DNA from: Anisus vortex
Lineage: Eukaryota; Mollusca; Gastropoda; Planorbidae
Assembly (NCBI GenBank): GCA_949126835.1
Contig: OX421497.1
Location: forward strand, 42,554,226-42,618,225
DNA length: 64,000 nt
Direction of reading: 5' to 3'
In this document: piece after piece, positions 692-56,700 of the stretch
Layout of the letters: every line of letters starts with the position of its first letter
Numbering within the stretch: position 1 is the first letter of the stretch
Translations under genes and position numbers: made by a program
The notes under the pieces: model-generated
Database searches by the model: none
Told to the model about the DNA's origin: nothing
What the model saw: the letters and a program-made list of their open reading frames with translations, nothing else

Positions 692-1284
692 ACAAAATAA
701 CGGTCACAATGTCAAGGCCAGATCCCGATGTTTCCATCCTGGTGATAAAGTCCTCATGTTGACCCAATTGTCTGGACAACCCCTGAGTGCAAAATATACA
801 GGACCATATCAGGTTTTAGATAAAATCAGTGATGTGACATACCTTGTAAAAACCCCTGATAGAAGGAAAACACAGAGACTGTGCCATATAAACATGCTAA
901 AACCTTATGTTGTTAGGGAAGAACAAACTGACATTAGGCCAGTGAGTGCTATCAAAACTGTTGAAACACCCCCGCCTAAATTTAAAAAGACAATCATAGA
1001 AAGTAAACTTCAAAACACTGAAGCACTTAAAAACCTCAATGATAACCTGGCACATCTAGACTCAGGTGAACAGACTTCTATCAAGGGTTTAATCTATGAT
1101 CATGTAAATTTGTTTAGTGATGTTCCTAACAAAACAACTTTGGTTACCCATGATGTAGTTTTTAAAGATGATAAGGTTAAACCTGTCAAACAACATCCTT
1201 ATAGGGTTAATACCATACAACTTAAGAATAACTTACGTATTGGTAAAAGATCACATCGTCGCGGACACCCTATCGCGCATGTAA
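692..1284 (+). pseudogene. pol remnant: integrase C-terminus fused by deletion to RNase H C-terminus
   Basis: An open frame enters from about 692 and is clear from 708. It aligns residue by residue with the integrase C-terminal (GPY/F-like) region of the intact pol, sharing [28 protein letters not shown] and HINMLKPY. It continues through the linker that precedes RT up to about 1226. The sequence then jumps to the very end of RNase H. In a shifted frame, 1257-1284 reads VADTLSRM-stop, the counterpart of [12 protein letters not shown] in the intact copy. About 1.2 kb holding the RT palm and RNase H is therefore deleted, and a frameshift follows the junction. It cannot encode a working polymerase. 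The ATG at 756 is internal, not a true start. Confidence 0.85.
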
Positions 1285-32166: not shown

Positions 32167-35100
32167 ATCCCTTGACCGTTGCCGTCCTTTAGTAACTAGC
32201 ATAGAATTTTGCATTGAATTTAGCAGTTGTCTTCCTTTATTTCTTCTCTTTAGTGATAGTTCACACGCAGAAAAAAAAATATTTTCTAACATCTAAATCT
32301 AGGATTTAACTAATCACCATTTATATTTATGTTAAGAGTACTAAGAAAGTGTCAGTTAAATTATAATTGTATCATATCTTATTATATTTAAAACTTTGGT
32401 TATAAAATCTATTGAAGTTCTTTTGGCTTTATACTGGGCTCATACAAGTTGGGAAAGTTTGGGAAAACTGAATGATTTTTTCAAGTTTGGGAAATCTTGA
32501 CGATAGTTTGGGATGAGTTTGTTAATTTTGCTATAATAGACAGAGCAGTATGATACTGAAAAAAATAATTCACAAATAAATTGTTCAATTTGGATTACCT
32601 ATTTACACTTCTGCTTAAAAATAGCACAATTAATACATCATTTCCAGCACATATTGGTTTGTGAAATGATTTTAGATTAAGAATCCTGCGTGTGAAGATG
32701 GAACTCATATAAATGTTTGGTCTAGCAAGAGAGCTCTGAATTGTCAGTTTTTAAGTCTTGGTCAAAATTCTGTTTAATGCTTACATTTTTTTCTGTGTTG
32801 TCTTTATAACTTTATTTGCTCTCATAGCCTTGTAGGCCTTAGAGAACTTTCATATAGGCAGTAAGAATTGTTTTTTTTGTGTCTTATATGATGTCACTTT
32901 CAAAGACTGAAATAATAAAAATAACATTTCATGATTGACTGTGACTGTCAGACTAGCTGTGAAATGTTGTGTATAAAATATTTAGGCCCTACAGGAATTT
33001 TTATTTTGTTATGTTACTGTAGTATGAACTAAAAATCTTTTATGTGTTTTTCAGTTTGCTGGTGTACTCACCTACAGTTTGTCTAAGCATGCAATAGATG
33101 CCTTTACACAGTGTGTTGCATTAGGTATGTTGAGCACATAGCTGCCCTATATTCTAGTTAAGTTCAGAAGTTACACAAGTTTATACATATATATTATAGT
33201 TTATTTAGCTTTTATTGAGTCAATTGGATGCATTATGTCCAGCTTCAGTTTATTTGGGTAATCATTTTATAAAATGTTACATTACAAGTCTTATTGTTCT
33301 TGTAACAGTTCTCAAAATTCCTTTTTTTGGGCCTAAATTTCTGTTTAAATAGAATTATTTCATCATCATCTGGATTCCATGATAATTTGTCTTTTATTAT
33401 TATTTCTAAGTACTTTGCATCTTAGTTTAATTTTACCATGAATGTCTTTTCCTTAAAACTATTATAACAGTTAACACTTTTCTGGGTGGAAAGACATACT
33501 CCAATTAGATTCCCGTTTTTGTAATTCATCTACGTATTTTTGTAGATCTCAGTATACTTTGCTGTCTATATTATTATACAAGCATCTGCAAAAATTCTTA
33601 CTTTGGTTCCTGTATTGTGCTGTTGACCTTTAAACCATTTTGCATATCCAGCCCCATTCACCAGTCTAAACCCAGCACCATTCACCAGTCTAAACCCAGC
33701 ACCATTCACCAGTCTAAACTCAGCACCATTCACCAGTCTAAACCCAGCACCATTCACCAGTCTAAACCCAGCACCATTCACCAGTCTAAACCCAGTTCCA
33801 TTCACCAGTCTAAACCCAGTACCATTCACCAGTCTAAACCCAGCACCATTCACCAGTCTAAACCCAGCACCATTCACCAGTCTAAACCCAGCACCATTCA
33901 CCAGTCTAAACCCAGCCTTCATTATATCCTGACATTATTTCATTTTACATCTTTGAAGCACTTAATCATTTCTCATGTCGATCAGAATAAATTATTTCTA
34001 AATGTCTTCTGATATATCACCTCAGTAAAAATCATTTTAGGCGTTGCAATATAGTTTCTTTTTTAAACGACATGTCTCGCATACATACATATTTTTTATT
34101 GGTCAAAATAAAGAAAACAGACAAACCATGCAGAAATTCAATATTATAAAAGAAAATCTTCTTTTGGGCAAGCCCTTGCTACTGCATAGATGGATTTAGC
34201 GAATGAGTTTGAGTGTACATTAGCCACAGCTTGCAGGCAGTAGCAGTGCAGGTTTCCTCACTGCACATCTTCATCATTTCCCACACCTGTCTTTGTGATT
34301 ATCCTGAAAATGTAAAGCAAAAATCATCATCTTCTATTGCACTAACACCAGCTATGATTTATAGTTTTTTGTGTTCCGCCAATGTGGGTAATCTGACATT
34401 TTATTAGTACCTGATATCGAAAAAAAAATATTTTTTAATAAATATATCTATAGAATAAGCTTTGATCATAGTTGATTACCTATATCAACTAAATATTGAT
34501 TCTGTTAAGCAGCAATTCTTAGAACAAAACAATGGATCATACAATGTATTTTAAAATTCTAACAAGCAGGTGATTACAATCGTTAGAATAAGCGGTGCAT
34601 ACTTTATCAAATATATTATATAGAAGTTTATATAGAAATAGATATATGTAGATATAATTTAATATAAACAAACTTTTTTTGTATGTACAGATCTAGCTGA
34701 CAAGCAAGTGAGAGTTAATTGTGTTAAGTATGTTTAATTTTTATTTGATTAGTATTTATAAATAACATTATCAATTGAAAATCTTCCAAAAATATTTCTC
34801 CTTTTTGAACATTACCAAATCTTTGAAAACAACACCAAAGAGAATTTTAACTTAACTATATAAACTATATAATTGATCAAAATGGAAAAAAAATTTTTGT
34901 CAAAAACTATTGTGACTTTCCAGGAACAAATGTCAATATTGTTTACATATTAATTTTTAAGATTGTTGTAAGCTATAACTGGCATTGTTTTATTTTAGGT
35001 TTCTAGTGACGTTTACATTATAAGTTTTTATTAAGTTCCTTGAATAACAATAATTCTCTGTATATGCTTCCAGTCCCGGTGTTACTCATACTCAATTACA

Positions 35101-38100
35101 CAAACGAGCTGGTCTCAATGAACAAGAATATCAAGCAGTAAGTAATTTTTTTAATGGAAATGATATTGTTACGAGTAGATTTATTTCCATATTATATTGG
35201 TTTTGTTATTATTAACTAAAGTTAAAATGAAATAATCTTAAACCCGAAATGTTTCCGTGTTAGGAATAAAACATGCATATGTCTAGACACTACGTCATAG
35301 CGATAAAATACGTCATATGCACGAGGGTGGAATACCGTTTAGTTTAGTTCTAGTTTGGGCGCTAATGTGGAAGGACTGTTTTTGACGACTTTCTTAAAGA
35401 TAGGATTACAGCTTAACTCATTATAGAAGAATCTCAACTGATTAAGTTTCATTATATAATACTGGTACATGTATTCTGTGGTATTGTTATATTTTATCAT
35501 CTCAACTTGTTGGAATAAAATTGTGTTCAATTTCAAACAGGATTGTGGATTTCCTATATATTAAGGTACAGTTTATCTAAATCACTTTATACACAAAAGA
35601 TTCATATCGCGACGAGTCAAATAAACATCAAATCTAATTCAATAACATCAATATAAATTCTTATACAACCTTGTGAGATCCAAGATGGATATGAATCAAA
35701 ATAATATATAATAATACATTACTAAAAATATCATCTAACGTCAGTAGCTGATTTCGCACGTGACAAAAGATTGGGGGCTCAAGTCCTGGATCTAAAGTTT
35801 GTATGTATAAGAAATTAAGAATATACAACTGTTTTAGTGAAAACGATTTACAACAAATATTTATTCAAATTCTGTCTACGTGGGAGGCACTGTCTGTGTT
35901 CGGACATACTGTTTTCAGCTTTGTACACAATCATCCTTAAAAATTTATCTTCTACAAATATTAAGTGGTGTAAAAATATTTCAAAGGACTTTATGAAAGG
36001 TAAAGTTGAAATTTTTTATCTTCTATTTACGTCATTAATATAAAACATGGCGGAAGCTAATCTTACGTTGGAGCAAATGAATATTTTTGCTATCACGTCA
36101 GAACAGTTAAATAGCATGTCACTAACCCAGTTAAAAGAGATGGCAAACTCTCTGGGAATAGACATTACTGAAGTTACACCAGTAAGGAGTAAATTGATTC
36201 AAGATATTAAGGAATGTTTGAAAAGACATGGTAGAATGCTTGAAGAAAATACTATGAATAATGAAGAATCAGTGGTTCTCAATGTATCAGAAACCCTGAA
36301 AACAGACATAAATAACCATGATATTAAAATGAATGTGAATGAACTAAGTGCGGACATAAAATTCCAGTTAGAAATGAAGAAGTTAGAAATTCAATTACAA
36401 TTACAATTAGAGGGTAAAAGAATAGAAGCAGAGAAAGAGAAGGAATTGGAAAAAGAAAGAATCGCTAGTAATGAAAGGATTGAATTGGCAAAGTCTCGTT
36501 CGTCAACTCATACGATGCAGGAAACAAATAATGTGGAACTATATAAGTTTAAAAAGCATGTTCCAAGCATGGAGAACATAGAGATTGATGAGTTCTTTAT
36601 GGTCTTCGAAAGAAACTCGATCGATTATAAATTTCCTGAAGATAAGAAAGCAGTACTTTTACGTTCAGCTCTAACAAAAGGCAAGGCTCTAGATGTAGTA
36701 TTGAATTTGACTCCAGAGGAATGCAATGATTATGAACTAATAAAGAGCAGAGTACTATTGAGTTATGTTCTAACTCCAGAAAAGTATCGAAAGTTATATC
36801 GTGAGTACAAGAAGGAACCAGAAATTTCACATGTTGACTTCCTGAGATTAGAGAAAAAGTATCTTGATCGATGGTTACGTTCTAAGAATGTGAATAAAGA
36901 TTATGAGAAACTATATAATCTCATACTGATGGAGGATTTTACTGAGAAGATTCGCACTGATATAAAAGTTCATTTGGCTGATCGTGGTATTGAAATAGCA
37001 GAACAAGCAGCAGTTAAAGCCGATGAATACGTCATTATTCACCCGCATAGCCATTATTTTCAAAATGACAGAACAAGTTTGAGGACTCAAAACAGTAATA
37101 CAGAGAGGAAGTTAAGATCGACAGATGATAAAAGTAAACAAAAAGCCGATAAACAAGAGAATTCAAGTTTTGTACAAAAGAGAATTACCTGTACATTCTG
37201 TAAGAAAGATGGACATATCAAAGAGAATTGTTGGAGTCTACATAAAGAGAAAAGACCCATTAAAAACAAGAACAACGTGGTTTTATCACACATCGCCGTA
37301 CAAACTGAAACTCATAGAAATAAAACTGCCCACAAAAGAATTAAAACTGAAAGAAAGACATCTGATGTTAGTCATGAGGAGATGGCGAAACACGCATGTC
37401 CAAGTTGCTCAAAGTCGGAAAAAGTCTTTGAAATGAAGACCGAGGCTATTGAACATTCTAGTTTCAACTCCAAAGGGAGTGTGACAGATGAGCAATCAGT
37501 AAATAAAACGTTTACTTATGGAGGCAGTAGTGTAGCAAGAAACTCAGTAGGCAGAGAACTACCCGAGTGCATGCTATCGGATGTTAGCGAGGGCTATGTG
37601 TCACCTATAGATAATCAAGCTAGAGAACGGAAGATTAAAATTCTACGTGACTCCGGTGCTGATATATCTCTACTGTTGAAGAATACTGTACCAACGTCGA
37701 AATTGACTCATACAGGCCAGTATGCCTTGATCAGTACTATGGCTGGAACACTTACGGCACCGTTACATCGTATACAGTTGAAGAGTAATTACTTCACTGG
37801 ATCTGTTATTGTTGGGATAGTGAAGAAATTTCCCTACAGAGGCATTTCATTACTTTTAGGAAGTGACATTGCCAAAAATCAGGTACATCCTGTACTTAAA
37901 GAAACCAAAGACTCTGTTCAGTGTAGGAATACTGAAAATTCAGTATGTGTTATCACCAGAGCTATGGAGAAACAGCAGATGACTAATGAATCGACAAAGA
38001 AACCAGAACCAACACCAGAGATTGACTTACAAGCAACCTTCATGGCGGATGTTCTAGGTGGTCACTCAAGTCATACTGATCAAAATAATTTGTCGCCTAG

Positions 38101-41100
38101 ACAACTACTCATTCTTGCTCAAGGCAAAGATCCAGAGATTGGGAAGCTAAAAGAGGAAGCAAAGAATGAAGGAGAGTTAGAAACAATGGCCGCAGGTTAT
38201 TACCTGAGGGATGAGTTGTTGATGAGGAAATGGAGAGGGAAAGAAAACGACGATGAAACATGCAGCGAAGTACATCAAATCGTGGTACCCAATGTATACC
38301 GCAAGGACATACTACATATGGCCCATGATTCACCGTATGCTGGTCACCTAGGGATACAGAAAACCTTCGACAGGATTCTTCCATATTTCTTCTGGCCTGG
38401 CCTACGTCGTGACGTCACATCGTTTTGCAGATCATGTCATGTCTGCCAGATGGTCGGCAAGCCGAATCAGACCATTCCGGTAGCTCCTCTACGACCCATA
38501 CCAGCATTCTCAGAACCCTTCAGTCACATCATTATAGACTGCGTCGGTCCGTTGCCTAAAACTAAGGCTGGCCACCAGTATCTGTTCACTATAATGTGTT
38601 CGGCAACGAGATTTCCAGAGGCTATTCCTCTACGTAGCATCAATGCCGACAAAATATCTGATGCACTTATCGGATTCTTCACCCGATATGGTCTTCCGAA
38701 AACCGTGCAGTCAGATCAAGGTTCAAATTTCACATCGAAATTATTTCGCCAAGTCTTAGAACGGCTGGGTATTCGTCATGCAGTATCGAGTGCATATCAT
38801 CCACAGAGTCAAGGCGCACTAGAACGATACCACCAAACATTGAAGAATATGCTCCGTACTTTCTGTTTCGAGCATAACGACGACTGGGATCGTGGTATTC
38901 CCTTCGCACTCTTCGCAACCAGAGAGGCTGTACAAGAATCTCTTGGTTTCAGTCCCTTTGAACTGGTATTCGGACACACAGTTCGTGGACCACTAAAGCT
39001 GTTACAAGAGACATGGTTGTCATCCACTGAAGACACTGGTCTACTGACATACGTGGAAAATTTTCAAAATAGACTGTATAATGCATTAAAAGTTGTCAGA
39101 TCTAATCTTTTGCAGGCACAAGACAAGATGAAGGTCTATTATGACGTCAACGCAAGAACCCGTATCTTCCAACCTGGTGATAAAGTTCTCATGCTGACGC
39201 CACTGTCTGGTCAACCCCTGAGTGCCAAGTTTACAGGACCCTATGAGGTTATGGCTAAGCTTAGTGAGGTTAACTATCTTGTAAAGACCCCTGATAGACG
39301 GAAATCGCAACGAGTGTGCCATATCAATATGTTGAAACCATACATTACCAGAGAAGAACAAAAAGTTGTTGCCTCGGTAAACACTGTTATTAAAGTCGGG
39401 AATAATTCACCCGAAATTGAGCGTGAAGTGGCAGAAAGCAAACTGCAAAATACAAAGGCTCTGAAAAACCTAAATGAAAAATTGGCACATTTACCTGATT
39501 GCGAACAATCCGCTATCAAAGGTCTAATTAATGAAAATATCCATTTATTTGGAGATGTACCTAGTAGAACTAGTGTAGTAAAGCATGATGTAATTCTAAA
39601 TGAAAATACTAAAGCTATTAAACAACATCCATACAGGTCAAATCCTATCCAGTTAGAATGCATCCGTAAAGAGGTTCACTACATGCTTGACAATGACATT
39701 ATTACACCTAGTAGTAGTGACTGGTCTTCCCCTTGCGTATTGGTACCTAAAGCCGATGGATCCATGAGGTTTTGTGTAGACTACCGTAAGGTAAACAAAG
39801 TGACAAAAACTGATTCCTATCCAATACCAAGAATCGACGATCTAATAGATCAAGTGAGTAATGCTAAGTTTGTGACGAAAATTGACCTATTGACGGCGTA
39901 TTTTCAGATTCCCCTGACGGAGAGGGCTCAGGAGATATCATCGTTTGTAACCCCTGACGGACTGTACAAATTTAAGGTCATGCCCTTTGGTATGGTTAAT
40001 GCACCCTCTACTTTTCAACGGTTAATAAATACCATTACTCAGGACATTCCTAAATGTCATGCATACCTCGATGATATTGTTGTCTTTAGTGACGATTTTA
40101 AATCTCATTTAGATCAACTACATTTGTTATTTACGAAATTGACTCATTCTAATCTCACCATTAACTTGACTAAGAGTCAGTTCTGCCATGCAACCATCGA
40201 GTATCTAGGTCACATGGTGGGAAATGGTTTGGTAAAACCATTAAATGCAAAGGTTAAGGCTATTCGTGAGTTCCCTGTTCCTGAAACCTGTAAACAACTC
40301 CGTAGTTTTCTCGGGATGGCGGGGTACTACCGTCGGTTCTGTCAAAATTTCTCAACCATTGCATGTCCATTAACAAATCTATTAAAGAAGAATTGCACTT
40401 TCAAATGGTCTAATGAATGCCACCAGGCCTTTGAGAAATTAAAAGATGTTCTTTCTGAGGCACCTGTATTAGTAACACCCAATTACAGTAAACCCTTTAA
40501 AATTACCGTTGACGCGTGTGATACAGGGATGGGAGCGGTCATTTCTCAAAAGGGTGATGATTCACTGGAACACCCGATTAGTTTTTACTCTCAAAAATTT
40601 GATAAGCATCAAAGAAACTATAGTGTGATAGAAAAGGAACTTTTAGGATTAATCCTGGCATTGAAACATTTTGATTGTTATATCAATGGTTCTCCATATC
40701 CAATTGATATTTTAACTGATCATAACCCTTTAGTTTTCCTTTCCAGGGTTAAACAGAACCAAAGAATTATTCGCTGGAGCTTATTCCTCCAAGCATATAA
40801 TTTAAATGTGTTATATTTACCAGGTAAACAAAATGTGGTCGCTGAGACGTTGTCGCGCATGTAACTGGTAAACCAGAAGATGAAAGTCAGTTTCTCATTA
40901 AATGTTTTCTTTTATGTCATTCATTGTATTGATTAACATTTATATTATTGTAAATATGACAATAAATAAACTATGTTTTGAAATATTGCAATATGAAACA
41001 TTACAGAACAAAACTTCAAATTCTACTAGAAACAATCATACGTTGTAAGGTAAAAGGTAACTATTGCATACAGCAATTGCACACACACCGGTATTTAACT

Positions 41101-42728
41101 TGAATACATCCACACTTGTGTTTGTTCAATTGATTATTGATGTGTTTTGAAAATTGTTTGTTTCTATGTCGTCATGTTATAATTTGGATGTCTTATTTTA
41201 TGCTATGTAAAAGCTAAATCAGCTGAGATTATAACATTTTTTTTTAAATATTCTTGATGTCATAATTGAGACATCATAATAATCATATAATAACTGAAAA
41301 TCATTAGTTAATGATACAGTGATCGGTTATAAATAAATTAAATTTTCTAAAGAATTATCTATCAATTATTAATCGGTTCCACTTATTTGGGTAATTCATA
41401 TCAATTCTGTGGGAATTGGTTATTGGTGGTAATAGTTTTATGGTCAACGTTGTACACACAATAATCATAATTGTAAATATTAATTGATAAATAAATGTTT
41501 AATTAATAATCATTGATACGATAATGTGATAAGGGATTCCATAATAGCGACTTTGTTATTAAGGGGATATGTAATATATGGTTCATTTTAATCTTTAAAA
41601 GATTGTCCAATAGTCAATTAAATCTTACGAATAGTTTGGGAATTCGGTTCATTTTATGGGTACTCTACAAAGAATTCCATACTTAACGCTGTCTGTAATT
41701 CCTTTGTGTCTTAAGGGGGGGCGAGTGTTACGAGTAGATTTATTTCCATATTATATTGGTTTTGTTATTATTAACTAAAGTTAAAATGAAATAATCTTAA
41801 ACCCGAAATGTTTCCGTGTTAGGAATAAAACATGCATATGTCTAGACACTACGTCATAGCGATAAAATACGTCATATGCACGAGGGTGGAATACCGTTTA
41901 GTTTAGTTCTAGTTTGGGCGCTAATGTGGAAGGACTGTTTTTGACGACTTTCTTAAAGATAGGATTACAGCTTAACTCATTATAGAAGAATCTCAACTGA
42001 TTAAGTTTCATTATATAATACTGGTACATGTATTCTGTGGTATTGTTATATTTTATCATCTCAACTTGTTGGAATAAAATTGTGTTCAATTTCAAACAGG
42101 ATTGTGGATTTCCTATATATTAAGGTACAGTTTATCTAAATCACTTTATACACAAAAGATTCATATCGCGACGAGTCAAATAAACATCAAATCTAATTCA
42201 ATAACATCAATATAAATTCTTATACAACCTTGTGAGATCCAAGATGGATATGAATCAAAATAATATATAATAATACATTACTAAAAATATCATCTAACGT
42301 CAGTAGCTGATTTCGCACGTGACAATATGAATATGTAGCTATATTGGTTTTGAAAAGTAAGTTTAACATATTTTTTATTGGTCAAAATAAAGAAAACAAA
42401 CCATGCATAAATTCAATATTATAAAAGAAAATCTTCATATGACATTTTTTTTTTTTTTTTTTTTTAAAGAAAGGATTAAAACCAATAAATGAATTTTTTT
42501 TTTTTTACTTTTCAGTATCTAAAGAGAGCAAGATTCACTCATGCTTTAGGAAGATATGGTGAGCCAGAGGAAGTGGCAGACTGCATTGCCTTTTTAGCCT
42601 CAGATCAGGCAAAGTTCATCACAGGGGCTAGCATCCCAGTGGACGGTGGACGACACGCCCTTTGCCCGAGCAGCCTGTCCCGGGAAGAAGGTGGGGTATC
42701 TGCCATGGCTCAGAGTGTGGATCTTTAA
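5927..42728 (+). CDS. Short-chain dehydrogenase/reductase (SDR), FabG-like, nine exons
   Basis: Spliced model: join(5927..5978, 30266..30399, 30990..31085, 31465..31550, 31925..32018, 33055..33124, 34691..34727, 35074..35137, 42516..42728). It encodes 281 residues, every intron is GT-AG, and the frame holds across all eight junctions. It is a classical SDR (Rossmann fold, NAD(P)(H)-dependent oxidoreductase). Visible motifs are the cofactor loop TGASSGIG (17-24), GD at 68-69, NNAG (96-99) and the tetrad N121, S148, Y161, K165 (YSLSK), then PG at 191-192 and a C-terminal VDGG. GRN after the second strand hints at NADP(H) but is not decisive. The start has a good context (A at -3, G at +4). A tail of about 24 residues follows the usual SDR end. 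The substrate cannot be told. The nearest label is 3-oxoacyl-ACP-reductase-like. No targeting signal is evident. Confidence 0.9.
5979..7032 (+). other. SDR intron 1, proximal part
   Basis: Intron 1 spans 5979-30265. This first kilobase is AT-rich, with a CT-repeat at 6580-6620 and a stretch near 6775-6825 (CAGGTTGGGAACCTCTGG) resembling one end of an hAT element. No partner end was found. Confidence 0.5.
7033..7530. repeat. Minisatellite of about 28 bp carrying CRE palindromes
   Basis: About 17 imperfect units built on GTGATTGATTGACGTCATAT plus ACGTCAGG. The palindrome TGACGTCA occurs perfectly at 7178, 7234, 7334, 7362, 7390 and 7418; other units carry AGACGTCA or TACGTCA. A larger period of 156 bp is visible: GATTGATAGGCCTAGACGTC recurs at 7131 and 7287. 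Confidence 0.92.
7826..8056 (-). mobile_element. tRNA-derived SINE
   Basis: On the minus strand it runs from a tRNA-like head with box-B-like GGTTCGAATCC through a core with CAGAGCTGG, AAGGCGGCTGTGCATAGTGC and GGCCACACAATCC to the tail TTCGGTCCGACGGG. Near full length. Confidence 0.8.
8219..8285. repeat. Poly-C tracts
   Basis: Two C-homopolymers (8219-8230 and 8269-8280) in a C/T-rich strand. Another lies at 8400-8413. Confidence 0.9.
8753..9081. repeat. 16-bp minisatellite
   Basis: About 20 copies of the unit CTGACACGGTTTATCA with variants (CACAG for CACGG, CGC for CAC). Two units near 9021-9040 lack the CACG portion. Confidence 0.93.
9521..9795 (-). mobile_element. tRNA-derived SINE, full length
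   Basis: The tail side begins AAGTACCCGTCGGACC and the tRNA-like head ends the element (box-B-like GAATTCGAAGCC at about 9750). It has the same core as the other SINE copies and is flanked at the tail by GTAAAGTAAAGTA. Confidence 0.85.
9815..9890 (-). mobile_element. LINE family A 3' tail
   Basis: The segment TTATACATTACAGCCGCTTCTTCTGTAAAG and the following TTGCG correspond on the minus strand to the conserved 3' UTR end of family A (CGCAATAATTTTCTTTA then GTCTGTAATATATAAG). Only the tail is present. Confidence 0.6.
9891..11364 (+). other. SDR intron 1 sequence without a recognised gene
   Basis: Holds homopolymer runs (A13 near 10529, T18 near 10771) and pyrimidine-rich sequence at 10680-10790. 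I see no coding segment. Confidence 0.5.
11365..11500 (+). mobile_element. LINE family A 3' end
   Basis: Reads [15 protein letters not shown] then [16 protein letters not shown] (about 11371-11472), followed by GACTCGGACCACGGATGA and ATATAAGATA. 5'-truncated. Confidence 0.75.
11501..12710 (+). other. SDR intron 1 sequence without a recognised gene
   Basis: Contains CT-rich tracts at 11980-12030 and 12180-12210 and C/G-rich sequence at 12060-12270 that leave frames open on both strands by composition alone. No gene is supported. Confidence 0.5.
12719..12939. mobile_element. hAT-type non-autonomous relic
   Basis: The left end CAGGCGTTGTCAACC and right end AAAGTTTGCCGACCCGCG are imperfect inverted hAT-like termini. 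The flanks ATATAACC (12711-12718) and ATATAACT (12940-12947) form an 8-bp target duplication with one mismatch. The 221-bp body includes a C-rich/A-rich tract and has no coding capacity. Confidence 0.6.
12948..15245 (+). other. SDR intron 1 sequence without a recognised gene
   Basis: AT-rich with A-runs (15079-15092, 15128-15144). A short stretch at 14330-14392 (GATTGTGTGGCCAGTGC) matches the SINE core in minus orientation and is probably a decayed SINE piece. Otherwise I see nothing in it. Confidence 0.45.
15254..15588. mobile_element. hAT MITE with perfect 8-bp target duplication
   Basis: Terminal inverted repeats CAGGTATGTCAAAC and GTTTGACACGCCTG bracket 335 bp. Immediately outside are identical 8-mers CTATAGAG at 15246-15253 and 15589-15596. 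Subterminal GCGGCCC/GGGCCGC stretches are typical of hAT ends. There is no transposase, so it was mobilised in trans. Confidence 0.88.
15597..16500 (+). other. SDR intron 1 sequence without a recognised gene
   Basis: AT-rich with no splice-bounded exon candidate and no recognised repeat apart from a short CA run near 15899-15915. Confidence 0.45.
16505..16610. repeat. Short tandem repeat, about 37 bp x 3
   Basis: Three imperfect copies of a unit with TTGATGAAGTCTCCATTGTC and AGTCAGCAC. The third copy is the most diverged. Confidence 0.85.
16640..16897 (-). mobile_element. tRNA-derived SINE, full length
   Basis: Tail AGTATCCCGTCGGACC, the shared core, and a tRNA-like head (box-B-like GGTTCGAATCC on the minus strand, at about 16842-16852) followed by box-A-like sequence near 16875-16885. 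Confidence 0.85.
17800..18138. repeat. Long poly-G and poly-C tracts
   Basis: A 21-nt G run at 17800-17820, a 19-nt C run at 18081-18099 and a 12-nt G run at 18127-18138, in purine/pyrimidine-asymmetric sequence. Confidence 0.9.
18139..19191 (+). other. SDR intron 1 sequence without a recognised gene
   Basis: AT-rich. ACAGTGGCTCCACCTTACG near 18252 resembles a pogo/Tigger-type end and CAGTGTTCCCCAAACATTT near 18769 an hAT-type end. Neither has a convincing partner. Confidence 0.4.
19194..19676. mobile_element. TA-flanked inverted-repeat element (Tc1/mariner-type MITE candidate)
   Basis: Ends CTCCCTTTCTTT and AAAGAAAGGGAG are exact inverted repeats, each flanked by TA (19192-19193 and 19677-19678). 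Weaker pairing continues inward. The body includes a run of GACA repeats near 19637-19652. The termini are low-complexity, so the pairing carries less weight than in the hAT case. Confidence 0.55.
20173..20378 (-). mobile_element. tRNA-derived SINE, lacking its head
   Basis: Tail AGCATCCCGTCGGACC and the complete core. It stops at ACCCGGGAACAGATCCTA before the tRNA-like head. Confidence 0.8.
20773..20975. repeat. TG-rich and (TCTA/TCTG)n microsatellites
   Basis: TG/TA-rich to about 20850, then TCTA/TCTG tetranucleotides to 20975. These create long open frames by composition alone. Confidence 0.92.
20990..23623 (+). other. SDR intron 1 sequence without a recognised gene
   Basis: Pyrimidine-rich at 21030-21290. 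A (TG)n lies at 21629-21644 and T-runs near 21812 and 23166. I see no gene. Confidence 0.45.
23624..23770. repeat. 17-bp minisatellite
   Basis: About eight copies of TGGTGCAATACTGCAAA with minor variants. Confidence 0.93.
23805..24065 (-). mobile_element. LINE family A 3' end
   Basis: The minus strand reads from GATAAACTTAAGGAC through the degenerate pol C-terminus (GCATCCGGGTATGACATGGG, where the family has GCATGGGATGGG) into the 3' UTR and the ATAAGATAAGATAA tail at 23805-23820. It shares the upstream portion with the copy at 3408. Confidence 0.7.
24066..24889 (+). other. SDR intron 1 sequence without a recognised gene
   Basis: A (CA)n run lies at 24443-24460. TAGTGGAACCCGAAGTTATA at 24689 resembles a pogo-type terminus without a partner. 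Confidence 0.4.
24890..25345. repeat. Minisatellite of about 40 bp (GATAGTGGAT-based)
   Basis: The main unit alternates AAGGAGATAGTGGATAAGAT and TTGGCGATAGTGGATAGTAT, with a 42-bp variant containing ATATATACG. A few units recur at 25441-25500 after a unique spacer. Long minus-strand frames here are only the repeat translated. Confidence 0.92.
25501..26580 (+). other. SDR intron 1 sequence without a recognised gene
   Basis: AT-rich, with a short duplicated GTTCTAGTAAAATAGCTGTG-type stretch near 26465-26525. Confidence 0.45.
26588..29219 (+). pseudogene. Defective LINE (family B): endonuclease plus truncated reverse transcriptase
   Basis: An EN/RT non-LTR retrotransposon in several frames. 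An apurinic-type endonuclease region runs from about 27055 (ASWNVRTMC) through VYAPTL (27409-27426) and [10 protein letters not shown] (27508-27535, across a frameshift) to the CDTDHSLV segment near 27778. The spacer and RT follow. [16 protein letters not shown] (28463-28510) and LLFADDAAL (28585-28611) are RT palm motifs. However, the part with the earlier palm motifs, including the first catalytic Asp, is absent: at about 28420 a region ending ELYATVNTV joins directly to [11 protein letters not shown]. The C-terminal part (28645-29217) is a clean open frame with [14 protein letters not shown] and GRIPKDLLY. It stops short of the zinc finger seen at 4740-5245. It is inert. Confidence 0.85.
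29387..29505. repeat. Short tandem repeat, about 32 bp
   Basis: Three to four imperfect copies built on TATCGCTCGCCCTACATCTC followed by ACATGACCTACA. Confidence 0.85.
29740..29830 (-). mobile_element. LINE family A 3' tail
   Basis: ATATATTACAGACGCTTCATC and TATAGTCTTGTATTTTTATT match the complement of the family A pol stop and 3' UTR. Confidence 0.6.
30266..30399 (+). CDS. SDR exon 2
   Basis: Residues 18-62: the rest of the TGASSGIG loop, the second beta strand and GRN. Acceptor TGTGTCCAG, donor AAAG|GTCGGT. It ends in phase 0. Confidence 0.92.
30507..30738 (+). mobile_element. tRNA-derived SINE, clearest tRNA-like head
   Basis: The head GGTGGCAGAGTGGCAGCG (box-A-like) and GGTTCAAATCC (box-B-like, near 30562) form a tRNA-like module. 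The shared core and the tail TCAACGGGATAC follow. It lies in SDR intron 2. Confidence 0.85.
30785..30870 (-). mobile_element. LINE family A pol C-terminus fragment
   Basis: The minus strand contains ATACAGAATGGGTTGCCTGA followed by GTCAGGAAAAC, the family A GLPEQTRK block, without its 3' UTR. Confidence 0.45.
30990..31085 (+). CDS. SDR exon 3
   Basis: Residues 63-94, with the adenine-ring Asp in GD (68-69) and LDIL leading into NNAG. Acceptor CATCTGAAG (weak tract), donor TTG|GTGAGA. Phase 0 at both ends. Confidence 0.88.
31465..31550 (+). CDS. SDR exon 4
   Basis: Residues 95-122 plus two bases of Arg123. Carries NNAG (96-99) and the structural/catalytic Asn121 (TNV). Acceptor TTTTTTCAG. 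Confidence 0.93.
31770..31875 (+). mobile_element. LINE family A 3' tail
   Basis: AATGCAAGACTAGACTCTGA, ACCACGGATGAGCGTAG, TTTTCTTTATAGAAGGAG and GTCTGTAATATATAAG in order, a nearly complete 3' UTR. It lies in SDR intron 4 close to the exon 5 acceptor. Confidence 0.75.
31925..32018 (+). CDS. SDR exon 5
   Basis: Residues 123-154, including NVSSING with catalytic Ser148. Acceptor CATTCCTCCTCAG, donor GCC|GTAAGG. Confidence 0.93.
32124..32168. repeat. (ATC)n microsatellite
   Basis: Perfect TCA/ATC trinucleotide run in SDR intron 5. Confidence 0.95.
33055..33124 (+). CDS. SDR exon 6
   Basis: Residues 155-177 plus one base of Asp178, with the catalytic YSLSK (Tyr161, Lys165). Acceptor GTGTTTTTCAG, donor TTAG|GTATGT. 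Confidence 0.94.
33653..33917. repeat. 24-bp minisatellite
   Basis: About 11 copies of a 24-bp unit beginning ACCATTCACCAGTCTAAACC and ending CAGC, in SDR intron 6. The length is a multiple of three and no frame used here contains a stop, so open frames exist on both strands. They are not genes. Confidence 0.95.
34089..34162. repeat. Duplicated intronic segment, copy 1
   Basis: About 74 bp nearly identical to 42367-42437. Both start ATATTTTTTATTGGTCAAAA and run to AAAAGAAAATCTTC. Copy 2 differs by a short deletion and a few substitutions. Confidence 0.85.
34691..34727 (+). CDS. SDR exon 7
   Basis: A 37-nt exon: rest of Asp178 to Val189 plus two bases of Asn190 ([10 protein letters not shown]). 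Acceptor TATGTACAG, donor TTAA|GTATGT. Confidence 0.88.
35074..35137 (+). CDS. SDR exon 8
   Basis: Rest of Asn190 to residue 211, with the conserved PG (191-192). Acceptor TGCTTCCAG, donor GCA|GTAAGT. The LTR retrotransposon begins 29 nt after this exon. Confidence 0.92.
35167..35765 (+). repeat. 5' LTR
   Basis: Begins TGTTACGAGTAG, ends CGCACGTGACA (TG...CA, with TGT/ACA inverted ends). Contains two ACGTCATA motifs and AATAAA motifs, which may act in transcription and 3'-end formation. Confidence 0.95.
35766..36046 (+). other. Leader of the LTR element, with candidate primer-binding site
   Basis: TGGGGGCTCAAGTCCTGG starts at 35772, six bases after the LTR, where a tRNA primer-binding site is expected; TGG pairs with a tRNA CCA end. 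The tRNA could not be identified by eye. The rest is AT-rich. The gag ATG follows at 36047 with A at -3 and G at +4. Confidence 0.6.
36047..40864 (+). CDS. Gag-Pol polyprotein, Gmr1-like (integrase before reverse transcriptase)
   Basis: A single uninterrupted frame of 1605 residues. Gag: SAP-like helix pair at about 27-60, a Lys/Glu-rich coiled coil at about 100-150, a capsid whose C-terminal part (about 245-330) reads like a SCAN domain, and a CX2CX4HX4C knuckle (382-395). Protease: LRDSGAD with DSG at 535-537. Integrase: HHCC zinc module at about 757-799 and a catalytic core Asp831, Asp890, Glu926 (the D,D-35-E spacing is exact). A GPY/F-like C-terminal module follows at about 1048-1085. 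[15 protein letters not shown] with Asp1280, then YLDD at 1340-1343. RNase H: Asp1489, EKE at 1529-1531, Asp1558, ending ETLSRM. No stop codon or frameshift separates Gag from Pol, so all products would come from one polyprotein cut by the protease. All catalytic residues I can check are intact. Family knowledge: Ty3/Gypsy-type sequences with copia-type order define Gmr1-like elements. Confidence 0.95.
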   Translation: MAEANLTLEQMNIFAITSEQLNSMSLTQLKEMANSLGIDITEVTPVRSKLIQDIKECLKRHGRMLEENTMNNEESVVLNVSETLKTDINNHDIKMNVNELSADIKFQLEMKKLEIQLQLQLEGKRIEAEKEKELEKERIASNERIELAKSRSSTHTMQETNNVELYKFKKHVPSMENIEIDEFFMVFERNSIDYKFPEDKKAVLLRSALTKGKALDVVLNLTPEECNDYELIKSRVLLSYVLTPEKYRKLYREYKKEPEISHVDFLRLEKKYLDRWLRSKNVNKDYEKLYNLILMEDFTEKIRTDIKVHLADRGIEIAEQAAVKADEYVIIHPHSHYFQNDRTSLRTQNSNTERKLRSTDDKSKQKADKQENSSFVQKRITCTFCKKDGHIKENCWSLHKEKRPIKNKNNVVLSHIAVQTETHRNKTAHKRIKTERKTSDVSHEEMAKHACPSCSKSEKVFEMKTEAIEHSSFNSKGSVTDEQSVNKTFTYGGSSVARNSVGRELPECMLSDVSEGYVSPIDNQARERKIKILRDSGADISLLLKNTVPTSKLTHTGQYALISTMAGTLTAPLHRIQLKSNYFTGSVIVGIVKKFPYRGISLLLGSDIAKNQVHPVLKETKDSVQCRNTENSVCVITRAMEKQQMTNESTKKPEPTPEIDLQATFMADVLGGHSSHTDQNNLSPRQLLILAQGKDPEIGKLKEEAKNEGELETMAAGYYLRDELLMRKWRGKENDDETCSEVHQIVVPNVYRKDILHMAHDSPYAGHLGIQKTFDRILPYFFWPGLRRDVTSFCRSCHVCQMVGKPNQTIPVAPLRPIPAFSEPFSHIIIDCVGPLPKTKAGHQYLFTIMCSATRFPEAIPLRSINADKISDALIGFFTRYGLPKTVQSDQGSNFTSKLFRQVLERLGIRHAVSSAYHPQSQGALERYHQTLKNMLRTFCFEHNDDWDRGIPFALFATREAVQESLGFSPFELVFGHTVRGPLKLLQETWLSSTEDTGLLTYVENFQNRLYNALKVVRSNLLQAQDKMKVYYDVNARTRIFQPGDKVLMLTPLSGQPLSAKFTGPYEVMAKLSEVNYLVKTPDRRKSQRVCHINMLKPYITREEQKVVASVNTVIKVGNNSPEIEREVAESKLQNTKALKNLNEKLAHLPDCEQSAIKGLINENIHLFGDVPSRTSVVKHDVILNENTKAIKQHPYRSNPIQLECIRKEVHYMLDNDIITPSSSDWSSPCVLVPKADGSMRFCVDYRKVNKVTKTDSYPIPRIDDLIDQVSNAKFVTKIDLLTAYFQIPLTERAQEISSFVTPDGLYKFKVMPFGMVNAPSTFQRLINTITQDIPKCHAYLDDIVVFSDDFKSHLDQLHLLFTKLTHSNLTINLTKSQFCHATIEYLGHMVGNGLVKPLNAKVKAIREFPVPETCKQLRSFLGMAGYYRRFCQNFSTIACPLTNLLKKNCTFKWSNECHQAFEKLKDVLSEAPVLVTPNYSKPFKITVDACDTGMGAVISQKGDDSLEHPISFYSQKFDKHQRNYSVIEKELLGLILALKHFDCYINGSPYPIDILTDHNPLVFLSRVKQNQRIIRWSLFLQAYNLNVLYLPGKQNVVAETLSRM
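40865..41725 (+). other. Long non-coding 3' region of the LTR element, ending in the polypurine tract
   Basis: 861 bp of AT-rich sequence with no open frame of note, and so no env. It ends in AAGGGGGGGCGAG (41713-41725), the expected plus-strand primer site immediately before the 3' LTR. The decayed relative at 1285-2058 has a similar segment. Confidence 0.8.
41726..42324 (+). repeat. 3' LTR
   Basis: Same length (599 bp) and, by eye, the same sequence as the 5' LTR. Followed by ATAT, matching the left flank. Confidence 0.95.
42367..42437. repeat. Duplicated intronic segment, copy 2
   Basis: Near-identical to 34089-34162. It lies in the short ancestral remainder of SDR intron 8 and is followed by a T19 run. 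Confidence 0.85.
42516..42728 (+). CDS. SDR exon 9 (terminal)
   Basis: Residues 212-281 and stop TAA. Contains [19 protein letters not shown] and the GASIPVDGG end of the SDR fold, then a tail of about 24 residues rich in Ser and Gly. Acceptor after a T-rich tract (ACTTTTCAG). Confidence 0.94.
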
Positions 42729-50742: not shown

Positions 50743-53700
50743 GTATGTTGACAAATTGATTTTTTATAATATTATGAATAAACCTATAGACTTATATAAT
50801 GATACTTTCCTTGCTTTATATAAATGTCTTTATTTCGTTATAAATTTCGATAGTCCGGATTTGTAAATTTTGTAGGGTTGATTTTTGTTGAAACTTGTGA
50901 ATACTGAATTCTGAATAGTATTATTAATATTATTATTATTATTAGTATAATATGCCTACTTTCGTTGAGTTAGATAAGTGATTTGAAATTTTCTAAATAA
51001 ATAAGTATTTTTTGCTATATAGGCCTACCAATATTAGGGCAGGGTTATTACGGTATTGATTAGTCCTACAAAGTTACAAAGTTACGATTTTCAGTTAGGC
51101 CTAGCCTGCACTAGGGCCTATTTATCATTAATTTATGCCTATGAATCCTATGAGGCAATGAACCACTATGATTCCTATGAATATGAATATGAATCTAAAT
51201 AGTATTTTAGTATAGGTATAGGAGTATAGGCTATAATTTATATATATATAAATAATAATGTGAAAAAAAACTGTGCCTCTGCCCCTGTAAATTTAGGAAG
51301 CATACCATTATAATTTATAAAAGGTAGATAGTTTATTACCTAGAAGCTTTTGGCCTTGGTATTAGACTACCAGTAGACACTTCCTATTAATAAATAGTAG
51401 GCTATCACTTTCAGACCACGTTGCACCATAGCGAGAGAAAAAAAGGTGCTGGTGCGAGACCTTTTCTGGGCCCTCCTTTCCAACACGTCATATCTAGATT
51501 ACTTATTTGCATTAAATACTTTTTGAGAAATCAGGAATCTTTTTAAAAGGTAAAAAGGTCTGTGGACCATTTGTCAAACTGTCATAAAAGATTAGGGCCT
51601 ACCATTAGAATGTAATCATACCATTCACAGCCTTTTAATCATGTAGACCCACAGTTTTTAGTTCAAATTAATGTAACTTATCCTCCACTTCAGTATTGAT
51701 CTTCTTCTTCGTTCTCAATATTTATTAATGGAGCGGTTCAAACAACAAGGCCTATAATATAGGTATGGTGAATTGCACGGTGGTGTCCAGGGTCTGTCTT
51801 TTTACAAATAATATTACAAAGATAAGTAAAATGGGAAAAGTACACTCACTGATGATTAATTTGGATGAAAAGAACTCCTGGAGAAGTGTTGGAGGTTATC
51901 AAGTTGGACAATTAGCTTGTCACAATTCATTTTAATATGGAATAATTTGAATGTGAAAAAAAAGAGAGTAAATTGAGAATCTGAGACAAGTTAAGGTAGG
52001 CTACTGGTAGTTTTCTCAGCTGCAAGGTTTAATACGTTGAGACATATATATCTATGACAGTTGGAACTCTGTAATAAATAAACTGCATATTATATAAATC
52101 AATATATACGCAATATAATGAAAATACAAACAATAGATCTAAATGGAGACCATTATAATGTAATTAGAGCTATTTCCCTTCTCATTGTTTCAAAGTTGCC
52201 AGAAATATAACATGGTCACTATAAGATTAACGGGTGTAGCCACAAGACACTGGAGGTTTCAGTTTGTTTCCCTCTCCTAGATGAGCTACCTACCAAGGCT
52301 TTTGAGCTTTATTTACCTTCACGGTCACCCTTCTCCTCTTAGTTGAAACATGACCCACTAGACTTAGGTATCAAGTCATTTAAGAAGGCTATTAGTTTGG
52401 CTTTGGTTAGCAGAGGCTATTAAGATGCAAGCCATGAGGATATTTCAAGAGAAGTCTGTGCTTATTTTTCATTTCCATTCCCAGCTGTACTAACCTTGAG
52501 CCACAATTTATACATAGGCCTACTAACTTTTAATTAGTAACAAATTTAATTTGTTTTGAGTATTTTAAATCTGAAAGTTTTTATTTAGGCATTCATAATT
52601 ATTAAATTTATTGACAAGTTTTACATTTGTAATACATTTGTTCATTGTTTTTTTTTCTACAATGCCTTACAGCTTTTCCAACAGTTTTTTTCAACAACAG
52701 CCCAATGGAGAGGATTCAGGACAGTATAATAGTATACAGGACAGCGAAAGTGATTTTGAGGTGGACTCAAACTGTGATGCTGAAGATGGACATGCCCTGG
52801 GGCAGAAGTATTCTGTCACTCCACCTACGTTATTCAGAAGCCAAATTCGGGAAAAGGAGCGCAATGGCAGTTCGAAAGGTCGAAATTCAGACAGGTCTTA
52901 CAAAGAGTTTCTGATCAGCAAGCGCCAGCAGCAACCAAAGTCTCAAAATGTGATAAAGAATGAGCACCCTTCAGACCCTGCTCTATGTAGCCTTACAGAG
53001 TTTGACTCGGACGACAACCTGGACATGGAGTCCATTAAAGAGAAAAGAGAGAAACGGAGACGGGAAAGTAAAGTTACGAAAAAGACATTGTCAATGATTC
53101 GCTGCAATGATAGGCAGGAAAAACGTTTATCTGAAGACTTTAGTGCATTGAATGTTAATGATGCCTTAGATCAGGCTCCAATCGCGGTCAAGCTAGAAGG
53201 CTCTGGTCGGTTCCAACACCTACGCAAGAAACCTGTTCTAATAAGTACAAGTAGTGTCCCTCGGCAGCAAGTGGCAGAAGTTCCAGTTTGTCAGAAAGAA
53301 AGGGAAGAGTTTTACACAAATTTTTCCTTGCTTATCAGTCTAGGGACTGAAGCTAAGAAAGACAAGGAAAAGAAAATGTCTTCCGCCAAAAGGCAAATAA
53401 GTGTGGAGCTCTACCAGTGGCAAGAGGCTATGTCAGAGCAACTCTGGATAGAGCTGCAGGCATACATCAATGGCAAAATATCACCTGAAGAGCAGTCAGA
53501 CATTTTGAAGAGGGAAAGGCAGCAGCACGAAGACGTTATAGATGACATAAATAAGTTTTGTTGTACTGACACGTTGACAGAGGACTGTTCCGATGGTGCA
53601 TTCATTGGGGATGCTGGTGTGGGGAACAGTTCCACCAACAGCAACCCGAACGAAAAGTCCAACAGAAGAGATCTAGTCACCAGGAGCGTGTCCGCCTCAT

Positions 53701-56700
53701 TTTCTGAGGTGAACTTAACAAACGACGTGGTGGGCCTGCAGGTGAAGGCCCTCTTTCAGGTACAGAAGCTGCTGGACAGGCTGGACCACTATGAAAGCTG
53801 TTTCAACACCACCAAGGCCTGCGAGAAGGAAAACAAAAAATACAAGGATCCAGAATTCCAGCGCAGGGTAAAGTGCCTCAATTTGTGGCTAAACATTACC
53901 TGTGACTTGTGCCAAAAGCTGAAACTTTTTGGGAAAATTATTTGCGCACCGGCCCGTGGTATAGCGTGGCCGCTTATTAACTTTGAGTTTCCAAAACCTC
54001 AACCAGTGGAGTTTGTCCCCAACTTGAGAGCTAGCTTACCCAATGTTTTGGAGACGGAGCCGACAGACTGCTCTGATATAGAAGAGCTTGATGATAGTTT
54101 CAGCAGTAAAAAAGACGATAAGAGCAATTCAGATTTCAGTGGTGACCCTGGAAGCAAACTCTTTCTGAGCCCCTGTCGGAAGCAGGTGAAATTTCAGTTT
54201 GGGGATGAGAGCAACAGTGATCCAGCATCTCCGTCCAGCAGCCCTTCAAACTACGATCCATCCAATCCGTTAAACTGCAGCACGCCTGCGCGTGACGGGG
54301 ACACATCTTCCTGCGCGAAGACTCCTTCTTATTCATCCATGCTTGGCTCCTCCCAGAGCAACCTCGAGGACAGCCAGCTGTACAACTCCTCTCTGTACAG
54401 GCATTACGTGGAAAAGTGTTTAAGGAAGATGGGTTTGCAGAAACTGAATGTCAGGCTGAGAGATTTATTTCACCGTAGCCTAGGAAGGGCTAAAGAGGCT
54501 TTGCAGAGACCCAAAGACACAAATTATACTGATACTGGCACTACAGAAAAGGTGAGTTGTTTGTTTTTTTACAATGTTCATTGCATGTACAAATATATGA
54601 TTGTAAGTTTCCAAGTTTATGCAAAGTTTACAATGAAAACATCTTTTATGCCTCTATCAATAGCAATAGTAAACACTAAAATAATTCCCCAAGTACATTT
54701 TTATATTTGATAACACTTGGTAGTTTAATTCAAAAATGTCTAATACTCAAGACCATGGTTCCAAAACAGGGGTCTGCAGTCCTAAAGGGGATTTCTGAAA
54801 GAAAGGACAGTAAAGCCGTAAAGGGGTTTCTGGCTTATGGCATTGCAGCCCATTTGTGAATTAGCTAGCCCTAGATATCTTGCTAGACTGCTCAAGGGAG
54901 GTTAAATATACATGAATGCCTGAAATAGTATTCTAATTGGTTAATATTTACTTATCAGGTTATTGTTTACTCAGAGCTGAAGAGTTACTCATCTGTTGCG
55001 ATAATAAGAAGTTGAAAAGCTGTGGTATTTTCTTTTGTCTTTTTCTGAGAAACCGCTGCTCTCACATAAACTTATGTAATTTTGCATAAATTTTGACCTA
55101 ATCATTTGATTAAAATTTTATTTCCACACATTTACAGATGCATAAATTATCTTCCAGAAAACAGCAAACTAAAAATCATATTTCGCCCACTTCAGAACCA
55201 TTCTGTGGAATCGCATCAAATATATGTTCAAACTATATAATTATTAAGTATTAAATATTTTGTGAGAATTTTCCGATTGAACCCCTTAAATAACGTGGAC
55301 GTCACATCATCGTCATAAAGAAATGGTAAAAATGTGCAAAGTCAGCAAATATTTACCGGTATATTAAAAACCTGTGGTAGTTAAATAAGGGTTCATTTAT
55401 AAAAAAATATTTTTTATTTTCCATTTCATTACAAATTGATCAAAGAGCAATAACTATATTTCTCTAGGAGGAAGAAAGCGCAGAGAAGCAAGAAGAGTGT
55501 CCTTCCATAAGCTCCTCTGGGCCATGCTCAGCTGATGATTTGACACGCCCGGGTCTTGCCAGGGGAAGTAGTCTCTCTGAACACGGTGAATGGAGCTCCC
55601 AGTTTATTGAAATGGGGCTGCCCTCTTTTCGCCCTACTTACTTGTACATTGTGCGGATTCAACTGGATGTGATCCATGAATGTTTGAAGCTGCGTAAAGA
55701 TCAAAGACCTATAGGAGACCCATCATTCCTTAGTATTAGACAGGTATGGGCTGTCCTGATGTATTAATAACCAATGACTTGATTCACATAGTCTTAGTTG
55801 CTAATTTTATCTAAAAATAATAAAATAATTTATTAACTGACTCTATAGCAGTTTCTGTTGAATAAACATTGTTATTATTATAAAGTAATTATTGAACTTC
55901 AGAATTCAAATACATTGTTAAGCAAGTCAATGGAATGAAATAAATTGTTTACTTTCACTTTTGAATGACATTAGTAAGCAAATGAAAGTTTACACAGCAG
56001 TGAATTCTGCTCACCAAATATTTACTATAACAAAGAAAGAAACAGTGTTATCAAGTAACATTGTAATACGATAGACAGCTAAAAAGTTGTTTTTTTTAAA
56101 GTTATCCTTTTAGCACAGAAAATATGATTACATAAAATAATAAAATAAACTTAATAGTGCTAGGGAGAAAAGGCTAGTTTATTTTGGGCTAAAAATTGTA
56201 CAAACTTATATGTGTTAACCTCTACTTTATTTATGCTTGAAACAAATTGTAATTTTTAAATACGGTATATATTTAGATTCAGGGGATAGAACTCTAAAAA
56301 AACTCTTGAGACATTTTACTATTTTCTCATTTGCCAGCTAATTCGTGAGTGTAAAGAGGTTTTGAAAGGAGCCACGATGGTCAAACAGTATTACCACTAC
56401 ATGGTGGACGCAGTCATGTGGGACGAGCAGGAGGCTGAGGCAAAGCTGGAGACAGACCTGTTGGAGTTTGATGAAGACATGAAGAGCATCTTGGATGTAA
56501 GACCCCCAAGTCTTATCTTTTTATATATTACAGACACCCTTTCTATACAGAAGATTGTTGTCTCTATGCTTAACCCTGGTTGGAGTTAGTCTTGCAGTTT
56601 GATTAGTGTTTTTAATGATAAGTTACTAGTTTTCCTGGTTTGTTCAGGTGACCCATTCCATGTTATTTGCTTTGTGCACTTTGATCATTGAGAAGTGAAC

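What the first reader, a model, noticed from the sequence alone, without database searches (positions are those of the whole stretch)
36047..40864. Intact LTR retrotransposon with integrase encoded before reverse transcriptase
Direct reading gives protease (DSG at 535-537), then integrase (Asp831, Asp890, Glu926), then RT (YLDD at 1340-1343), then RNase H. The domains are Ty3/Gypsy-like, with a GPY/F-like module and a Gypsy-type RT and RNase H, but the order is that of Ty1/copia. This defines Gmr1-like elements, first described as a deuterostome group. If the host is a mollusc, as the repeats suggest, this is an intact, possibly active protostome member.
Basis: partly seen in the sequence, partly recalled or inferred. 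Interest (0 to 1): 0.75.

Follow-up and report, generated by a model that had tools for sequence, protein, structure and literature searches.

The report
Snail Gmr1-like retrotransposon with RT-less partner
A recently copied jumping gene in a freshwater ramshorn snail carries its enzymes in an unusual but already described order, and it shares the genome with a shortened form that has lost its copying enzyme yet appears still to spread and to swap sequence with the complete form.

Summary
Window 35167-42324 is a complete LTR retrotransposon: identical 599-bp LTRs, a 4-bp target duplication, one 1605-codon gag-PR-IN-RT-RNaseH frame. RT and IN are Ty3/Gypsy-type; IN precedes RT. COX1 places the host with planorbid snails, nearest Bathyomphalus contortus. 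IN-first elements form one group in separate RT and IN trees, so this is a Gmr1-like element of a mollusc. Twelve of 12 further long copies share the order.

The less expected part lies elsewhere in the genome: 508 matches to an RT probe, and 222 to the junction of a shorter form that lost RT and RNaseH and keeps gag-PR-IN. The short form has the same LTR ends and near-identical PBS, equally young LTR pairs and its own target duplications. It shows no fixed difference from long copies in LTR, gag, IN or 3' region, but 10-22% divergence beside the deletion. Best reading: an RT-less partner mobilised in trans and recombining with the autonomous element. A sister family shows none.

The parts
35163..35166 (+). 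target site duplication ATAT, left copy
   Evidence: right copy at 42325-42328
35167..35765 (+). 5' LTR, 599 bp, TG...CA
   Evidence: identical to the 3' LTR
35772..35789 (+). primer binding site, tRNA-Pro-like variant
   Evidence: position; copy L038 carries in its place the exact complement of the 3' end of host tRNA-Pro genes L061 and L064 plus CCA
36047..40864 (+). single gag-pol ORF, 1605 codons, open
36776..37030 (+). SCAN-like part of the Gag capsid
   Evidence: PF02023 E 7.2e-5, 22.9 bits, below its cut-off of 27
37190..37231 (+). CCHC zinc knuckle of Gag, aa 382-395
37628..37873 (+). aspartic protease, DSG at 37649-37657
   Evidence: RVP 20.8 bits, cut-off 20.7
38285..38803 (+). integrase zinc-binding and catalytic domains (D831, D890; E926 lies just beyond, at 38822)
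   Evidence: PF17921, PF00665; best PDB chain Ty3 2.4e-27
39236..39244 (+). GPY of the integrase C-terminal GPY/F module
39743..40216 (+). reverse transcriptase, YLDD at 40064-40075
   Evidence: PF00078; best PDB chain Ty3
40406..40798 (+). RNase H
   Evidence: PF17919, PF17917
39574..40876 (+). stretch absent from the RT-less short form elsewhere in the genome (present in this copy)
   Evidence: left match ends at 39573 in 12 of 12 short copies; right match resumes at 40877 in 8 and at 40884 in 4
41713..41725 (+). polypurine tract
   Evidence: adjoins the 3' LTR
41726..42324 (+). 3' LTR
42325..42328 (+). target site duplication ATAT, right copy

Best explanation
The window holds a recently inserted, structurally complete Gmr1-like Ty3/Gypsy LTR retrotransposon of a planorbid snail. 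It encodes one Gag-PR-IN-RT-RH polyprotein, probably primes reverse transcription from tRNA-Pro, and integrates with 4-bp duplications (structure shown, activity inferred). It lives with a short form that lost RT and RNase H, most likely in one event, and still encodes Gag-PR-IN. The short RNA is packaged with the long one and copied by its RT; template switching in shared particles mixes the two, so they are one recombining population with two states at the pol locus (inferred from sequence alone). Because IN precedes RT here, a 3' pol deletion leaves gag, PR and IN in frame; in the ordinary Gypsy order it would take IN first.
For: Anatomy. Kinship: IN-first rows are one side of a branch in the RT tree (35 of 42 labelled rows, 100/100) and in the IN tree (34 of 39 rows, 99/96); of the 120 homologues listed, 82 have IN before RT, 4 the reverse, 34 no mapped IN. 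Copy number by 40-mers with up to 3 mismatches, backward controls 0: RT 508, IN 775, LTR 1028, short junction 222. Short form: same gap in the 12 of 12 copies examined; whole ORF open in 7 of 8 copies chosen by LTR spacing and 1 of 4 chosen by junction; 12 of 12 are open through the block beside the gap, have the same 6-base in-frame insertion (0 of 13 long copies) and end at the same TGA. Mobility: 4-bp duplications in 6 of 8 short and 10 of 12 long copies, read; LTR pairs differ by 0-1 of 599 bases (short; one pair also has 12 gap positions) and 0-2 (long). Exchange: no fixed difference in LTR, gag, IN or 3' region; 43 of 46 gag, 13 of 18 IN, 15 of 17 3'-region and 4 of 11 LTR SNPs occur in all four combinations with short/long; 31 of 45 non-singleton variants in PR-IN are shared; yet 10-22% divergence per bin at 39411-39573.
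Against: No RNA or protein data; packaging and template switching are inferred. Ectopic gene conversion between genomic copies could also mix the forms. Copies were sampled mostly through exact pattern matches, which favours young ones, and only 12 of about 222 short copies were read. Only 7 RT-first rows (RT tree) and 5 (IN tree) were available, so near relatives in the ordinary order could be missing. L031 (in a tandem array), L037, L046 and L050 lack matching duplications. Only 4 of 11 LTR SNPs show all four combinations. L040 has no PPT match within 3 errors, and the PPT of L034 and L035 is altered.
Confidence: 0.8

Rival explanations
1. The short form is a helper, not only a passenger: its Gag-PR-IN product raises the ratio of Gag to RT in particles, which a single-frame element without frameshift cannot adjust itself.
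For: The gag-PR-IN frame is kept in 8 of 12 copies read; the block private to short copies is open in 12 of 12, with an in-frame 6-base insertion and one stop position; pN/pS in IN is 0.18 in short and 0.19 in long copies. Published parallels: wheat Quinta is proposed to supply Gag to Cereba (PMC11302176, abstract and passages); BARE makes a spliced Gag RNA (PMC3735527, abstract).
Against: Recombination with long copies would keep most of the short frame intact without any use. Variants found only in short copies are few (5 synonymous, 2 non-synonymous among those in two or more copies).
Confidence: 0.35
2. The short form is a pure parasite whose open frame is hitch-hiking on recent exchange with long copies.
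For: All exchange data; in the junction-chosen sample only 1 of 4 copies has the whole frame.
Against: The block that is private to short copies, which exchange cannot mend, is still open in 12 of 12.
Confidence: 0.5
3. Mixing between the forms is gene conversion between genomic copies, not template switching in particles.
For: Not distinguished by these data; head-to-tail copies at one-element spacing suggest that copies do recombine in the genome.
Against: LTR pairs stay identical or nearly so within copies while backbones differ between copies, which fits mixing before insertion.
Confidence: 0.2
4. The order is an assembly or local rearrangement artefact, or the element is a Copia element.
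For: None found.
Against: 12 of 12 copies, a second family L058 in the same genome and 82 of 120 listed homologues share the order; IN scores 99 bits with Ty3 and 28.5 with chain 7z0h_W, Ty1 by recall.
Confidence: 0.01

Closest known systems
Gmr1-like clade of Ty3/Gypsy (Metaviridae), type element from Gadus morhua
   Same: Gypsy-type RT, RNase H and IN with IN upstream of RT; SCAN-like Gag (PMC8220671 and PMC4592553, passages)
   Different: Mollusc host; type sequence not compared; accompanied by an RT-less form
L058 family, second IN-first family of the same genome
   Same: PR-IN-RT-RH order; 73% IN and 76% RT identity
   Different: 51 IN and 51 RT pattern matches, so no sign of an RT-less form
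Cereba/Quinta of wheat, with the 'semi-autonomous' Sabrina (PMC11302176, abstract and passages)
   Same: Autonomous and RT-less partners sharing PBS, LTR ends and activity period; partner keeps Gag
   Different: Quinta keeps Gag (and an unknown domain) and lost IN with RT; here PR and IN are kept, and the two forms are not separate lineages outside a short block
BARE1/BARE2 of barley (PMC3735527, abstract)
   Same: Autonomous element with a parasite that is packaged in trans; single ORF
   Different: BARE2 cannot make Gag; here RT is what is missing

Membership tests
Gmr1-like Ty3/Gypsy | integrase encoded upstream of reverse transcriptase | tested here: met
Gmr1-like Ty3/Gypsy | RT, RNase H and IN of Ty3/Gypsy type | tested here: met
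   best PDB chains are Ty3 for RT-RH (1.4e-94) and IN (2.4e-27)
Gmr1-like Ty3/Gypsy | RT and IN group with other IN-first elements, apart from RT-first Gypsy | tested here: met
   100/100 and 99/96, one change each; 7 and 5 RT-first rows only, with long branches
Gmr1-like Ty3/Gypsy | groups with the type element Gmr1 of Gadus morhua | not testable with these tools
   sequence not held; a carp IN-first element (P0317) falls inside the group
Gmr1-like Ty3/Gypsy | SCAN-like capsid (associated feature, PMC4592553 passages) | tested here: inconclusive
   PF02023 at 7.2e-5 but below the curated cut-off; precomputed for 33 of the 34 listed homologues with a mapped capsid; no SCAN chain in the PDB by sequence
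Ty1/copia | copia-type RT and IN | tested here: not met
   Ty3 is the best match for both
BEL/Pao | BEL-type RT and IN | not tested
   no BEL sequence was put in a tree; Ty3 is the best PDB match
autonomous/non-autonomous LTR partner pair (criteria in PMC9744471, passages) | same PBS and LTR termini | tested here: met
   family 18-mer exact in 7 of 8 short (the eighth has the tRNA-Pro complement) and 11 of 12 long copies plus the window; TGTT...GACA in 20 of 20
autonomous/non-autonomous LTR partner pair (criteria in PMC9744471, passages) | active over the same period | tested here: met
   LTR pair differences 0-1 and 0-2 of 599 in 8 short and 12 long copies, chosen through exact LTR matches
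autonomous/non-autonomous LTR partner pair (criteria in PMC9744471, passages) | expressed at the same time | not testable with these tools
   no RNA data; LTRs of the two forms differ by 1.3% on average

The most novel reading that the evidence does not exclude
The integrase-first order gave this lineage a stable two-genome life: a long form carrying everything and an old RT-less form that supplies Gag, protease and integrase to shared particles, both kept by constant recombination. The same loss may have arisen independently in other IN-first elements, as in-frame RT-less proteins of Diadema (P0333) and of an unnamed source (P0260) hint, though gene prediction could have made those.
Probability: 0.3. 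Interest if true: 0.7.

Novelty: new variant of a known kind. Interest (0 to 1): 0.5.

Why it matters
It shows that complete, recently multiplied Gmr1-like elements occur in a gastropod. It also offers a natural case, in one sequenced genome, for asking how retroelements without a frameshift set their Gag:RT ratio, and whether a defective form can persist by recombining with its helper. The domain order makes a testable prediction: RT-less, IN-bearing partners should be found in IN-first lineages and be rare in ordinary Gypsy.

Tried and rejected
Artefact and Copia readings were rejected; BEL was not tested in a tree. The RT-less proteins of other species (30 with CA-PR-IN among 109) were looked at as possible relatives of the short form. 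Their ends fall at different places, so stops, frameshifts or gene prediction may explain them. Of the 13 compared with full-length proteins, P0333 and P0260 skip RT and resume in RNase H, and P0340 skips part of RT and resumes late. P0241 (89% identical) ends in a long-form-like linker, not in the short-form tail. A search for a tRNA matching the common PBS variant found none, and ARAGORN found no tRNA in L059 and L060; of four more places, L061 and L064 are tRNA-Pro, L063 was called tRNA-Ser and L062 none. The PDB search with the capsid piece gave only a chance-like hit. No structure prediction was run.

Papers opened but not used above: PMC8556966, PMC4131045, PMC12440569, PMC10294476 (passages), PMC3087523 (abstract).
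Full report
What is there. The window copy runs from 35167 to 42324. Its LTRs (599 bp, TG...CA) are identical and are flanked by ATAT on both sides. A PBS starts at 35772 and a polypurine tract ends at 41725.

Whose genome. The mitochondrial contig encodes a COX1 that is 99% identical to Bathyomphalus contortus and 98% to Gyraulus. The host is therefore a planorbid snail; the species is likely but not proven.

Kinship. By sequence, RT-RNase H matches Ty3 best in the PDB (1.4e-94) and IN also matches Ty3 best (2.4e-27); chain 7z0h_W, which I recall to be Ty1 integrase, scores 28.5 bits. Of 120 homologues listed (of 4216 hits), 82 have IN before RT, 4 have RT before IN and 34 have no mapped IN. 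Of 109 further proteins from the short-form search, 62 have IN before RT, none the reverse and 47 no mapped RT. I put 43 chosen sequences and loci, the window and Ty3 into trees: in the RT tree of 44 rows (35 IN-first, 7 RT-first, 2 unlabelled) and the IN tree of 39 (34 and 5), the order changes once, with support 100/100 and 99/96; rows covering under 75% of a domain were dropped. RT and IN thus tell the same story, so the element is not a chimera of two lineages. The IN-first side holds snails, Pinctada, echinoderms, hemichordates and carp. Long branches separate the two sides and few RT-first rows were at hand. Same-genome controls behave: L056 and L057 are RT-RH-IN, L058 is IN-first.

Known before. 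Crustacean elements were called the first Gmr1-like ones in protostomes in 2013 (PMC3587641, passages). An annelid family was placed in the clade in 2021 (PMC8220671, passages). A mollusc survey lists C, AB, CsRN1, Cigr-1, Tor2 and 16 MolGy clades but no Gmr1 clade (PMC6238403, section 6 and passages). It classed by RT/RNase H, so some MolGy clades may be IN-first; I could not check. The searches (20 of 75 papers listed) listed no title or abstract start that announces a Gmr1-like element in a mollusc; only open papers are held and most were seen as listings.

Abundance and age. With 40-mers at up to 3 mismatches (backward controls 0), the genome has 508 RT, 775 IN and 1028 LTR matches. In the protein search 150 of 5152 candidates were scored and listed at 99-100% identity to the query; at least 96 of them have an open frame of 1590 codons or more (counted on 149 transcribed values). 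Of 12 long copies, picked from exact LTR matches on C1-C3, 9 have an ORF of at least 1600 codons, 8 have LTR pairs without mismatch, and 10 have matching 4-bp duplications.

The short form. LTR pairs also come at about 5.3 kb. Eight such copies, and four more chosen from the junction list, all lack about 39574-40876 of the window; the junction 40-mer occurs 222 times. The remaining frame is gag-PR-IN, 1187-1207 codons where whole: 7 of 8 in the first set, 1 of 4 in the second. In 12 of 12 the frame is open through the block beside the deletion, carries the same 6-base insertion (0 of 13 long copies) and ends at the same TGA.

One population. Mean divergence between forms is like that within forms (short, long): gag 2.0% against 1.9 and 1.8; IN 1.1 against 1.1 and 0.9; 3' region 1.5 against 1.6 and 1.1; LTR 1.3 against 1.0 and 1.3 (12 short and 13 long copies, 8 short for LTR and 3' region). 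No piece has a fixed difference. Most informative SNPs in gag, IN and 3' region occur in all four combinations with the form (43/46, 13/18, 15/17), fewer in the LTR (4/11). Beside the gap, at 39411-39573, the forms differ by 10-22% per 40-base bin, with 20 fixed columns. Against L058 the long form looks ancestral in this block. So the deletion most likely arose once, is old relative to the insertions, and moves between backbones.

Mechanism. The simplest account is trans-mobilisation: the same LTR ends, PBS and, with small exceptions, PPT, RT from long copies, and template switching between packaged RNAs. In one short copy (L038) the PBS is the exact 18-base complement of the 3' end of host tRNA-Pro genes plus CCA, as expected if it was copied from the primer; the other copies carry a variant of it. 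Whether the short product helps or merely rides is open: pN/pS is alike in both forms (0.18 and 0.19), but exchange alone could cause that. Singletons are mostly non-synonymous in both forms, as expected after insertion.

Specificity. In the L058 family, 51 IN and 51 RT matches give no sign of an RT-less form, so it is not a by-product of the order alone. The order only makes such a form possible while IN is kept. The listings (20 of 26; 20 of 55; 15 of 378; 12 of 45) showed no RT-less partner that keeps PR and IN; the nearest cases seen keep Gag (PMC11302176, passages) or lack Gag (PMC3735527, PMC3977881, abstracts).

Noticed in passing
window 711-1205: Relics of an integrase (80% over 153 bases) and RT (71% over 209 bases) related to this family but not part of it.
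   Followed up: no
G000:C1:2981834-2997815; G000:C8:11475925-11510468; G000:C14:13536958-13544070: Head-to-tail copies at a spacing of one element, short or long, as expected for unequal crossing-over at shared LTRs.
   Followed up: partly
window 34087-34166 and 42366-42441: An 88-91% direct repeat lies on both sides of the element, about 8.28 kb apart, outside the LTRs.
   Followed up: no
window 52611-54710: A 699-codon open stretch matches the MEKK4 N-terminal family (1.2e-30), probably a host gene exon.
   Followed up: partly
window 59746-64000: Long tandem array with a 37-base unit that runs to the end of the window.
   Followed up: no
L059, L060: Two of 20 places matching a tRNA-Pro 3' end lie in non-tRNA sequence and may be a longer tRNA-Pro PBS of another retroelement.
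   Followed up: partly
P0333, P0260: Proteins of Diadema setosum and of an unnamed source keep gag-PR-IN, skip RT and resume in RNase H.
   Followed up: partly
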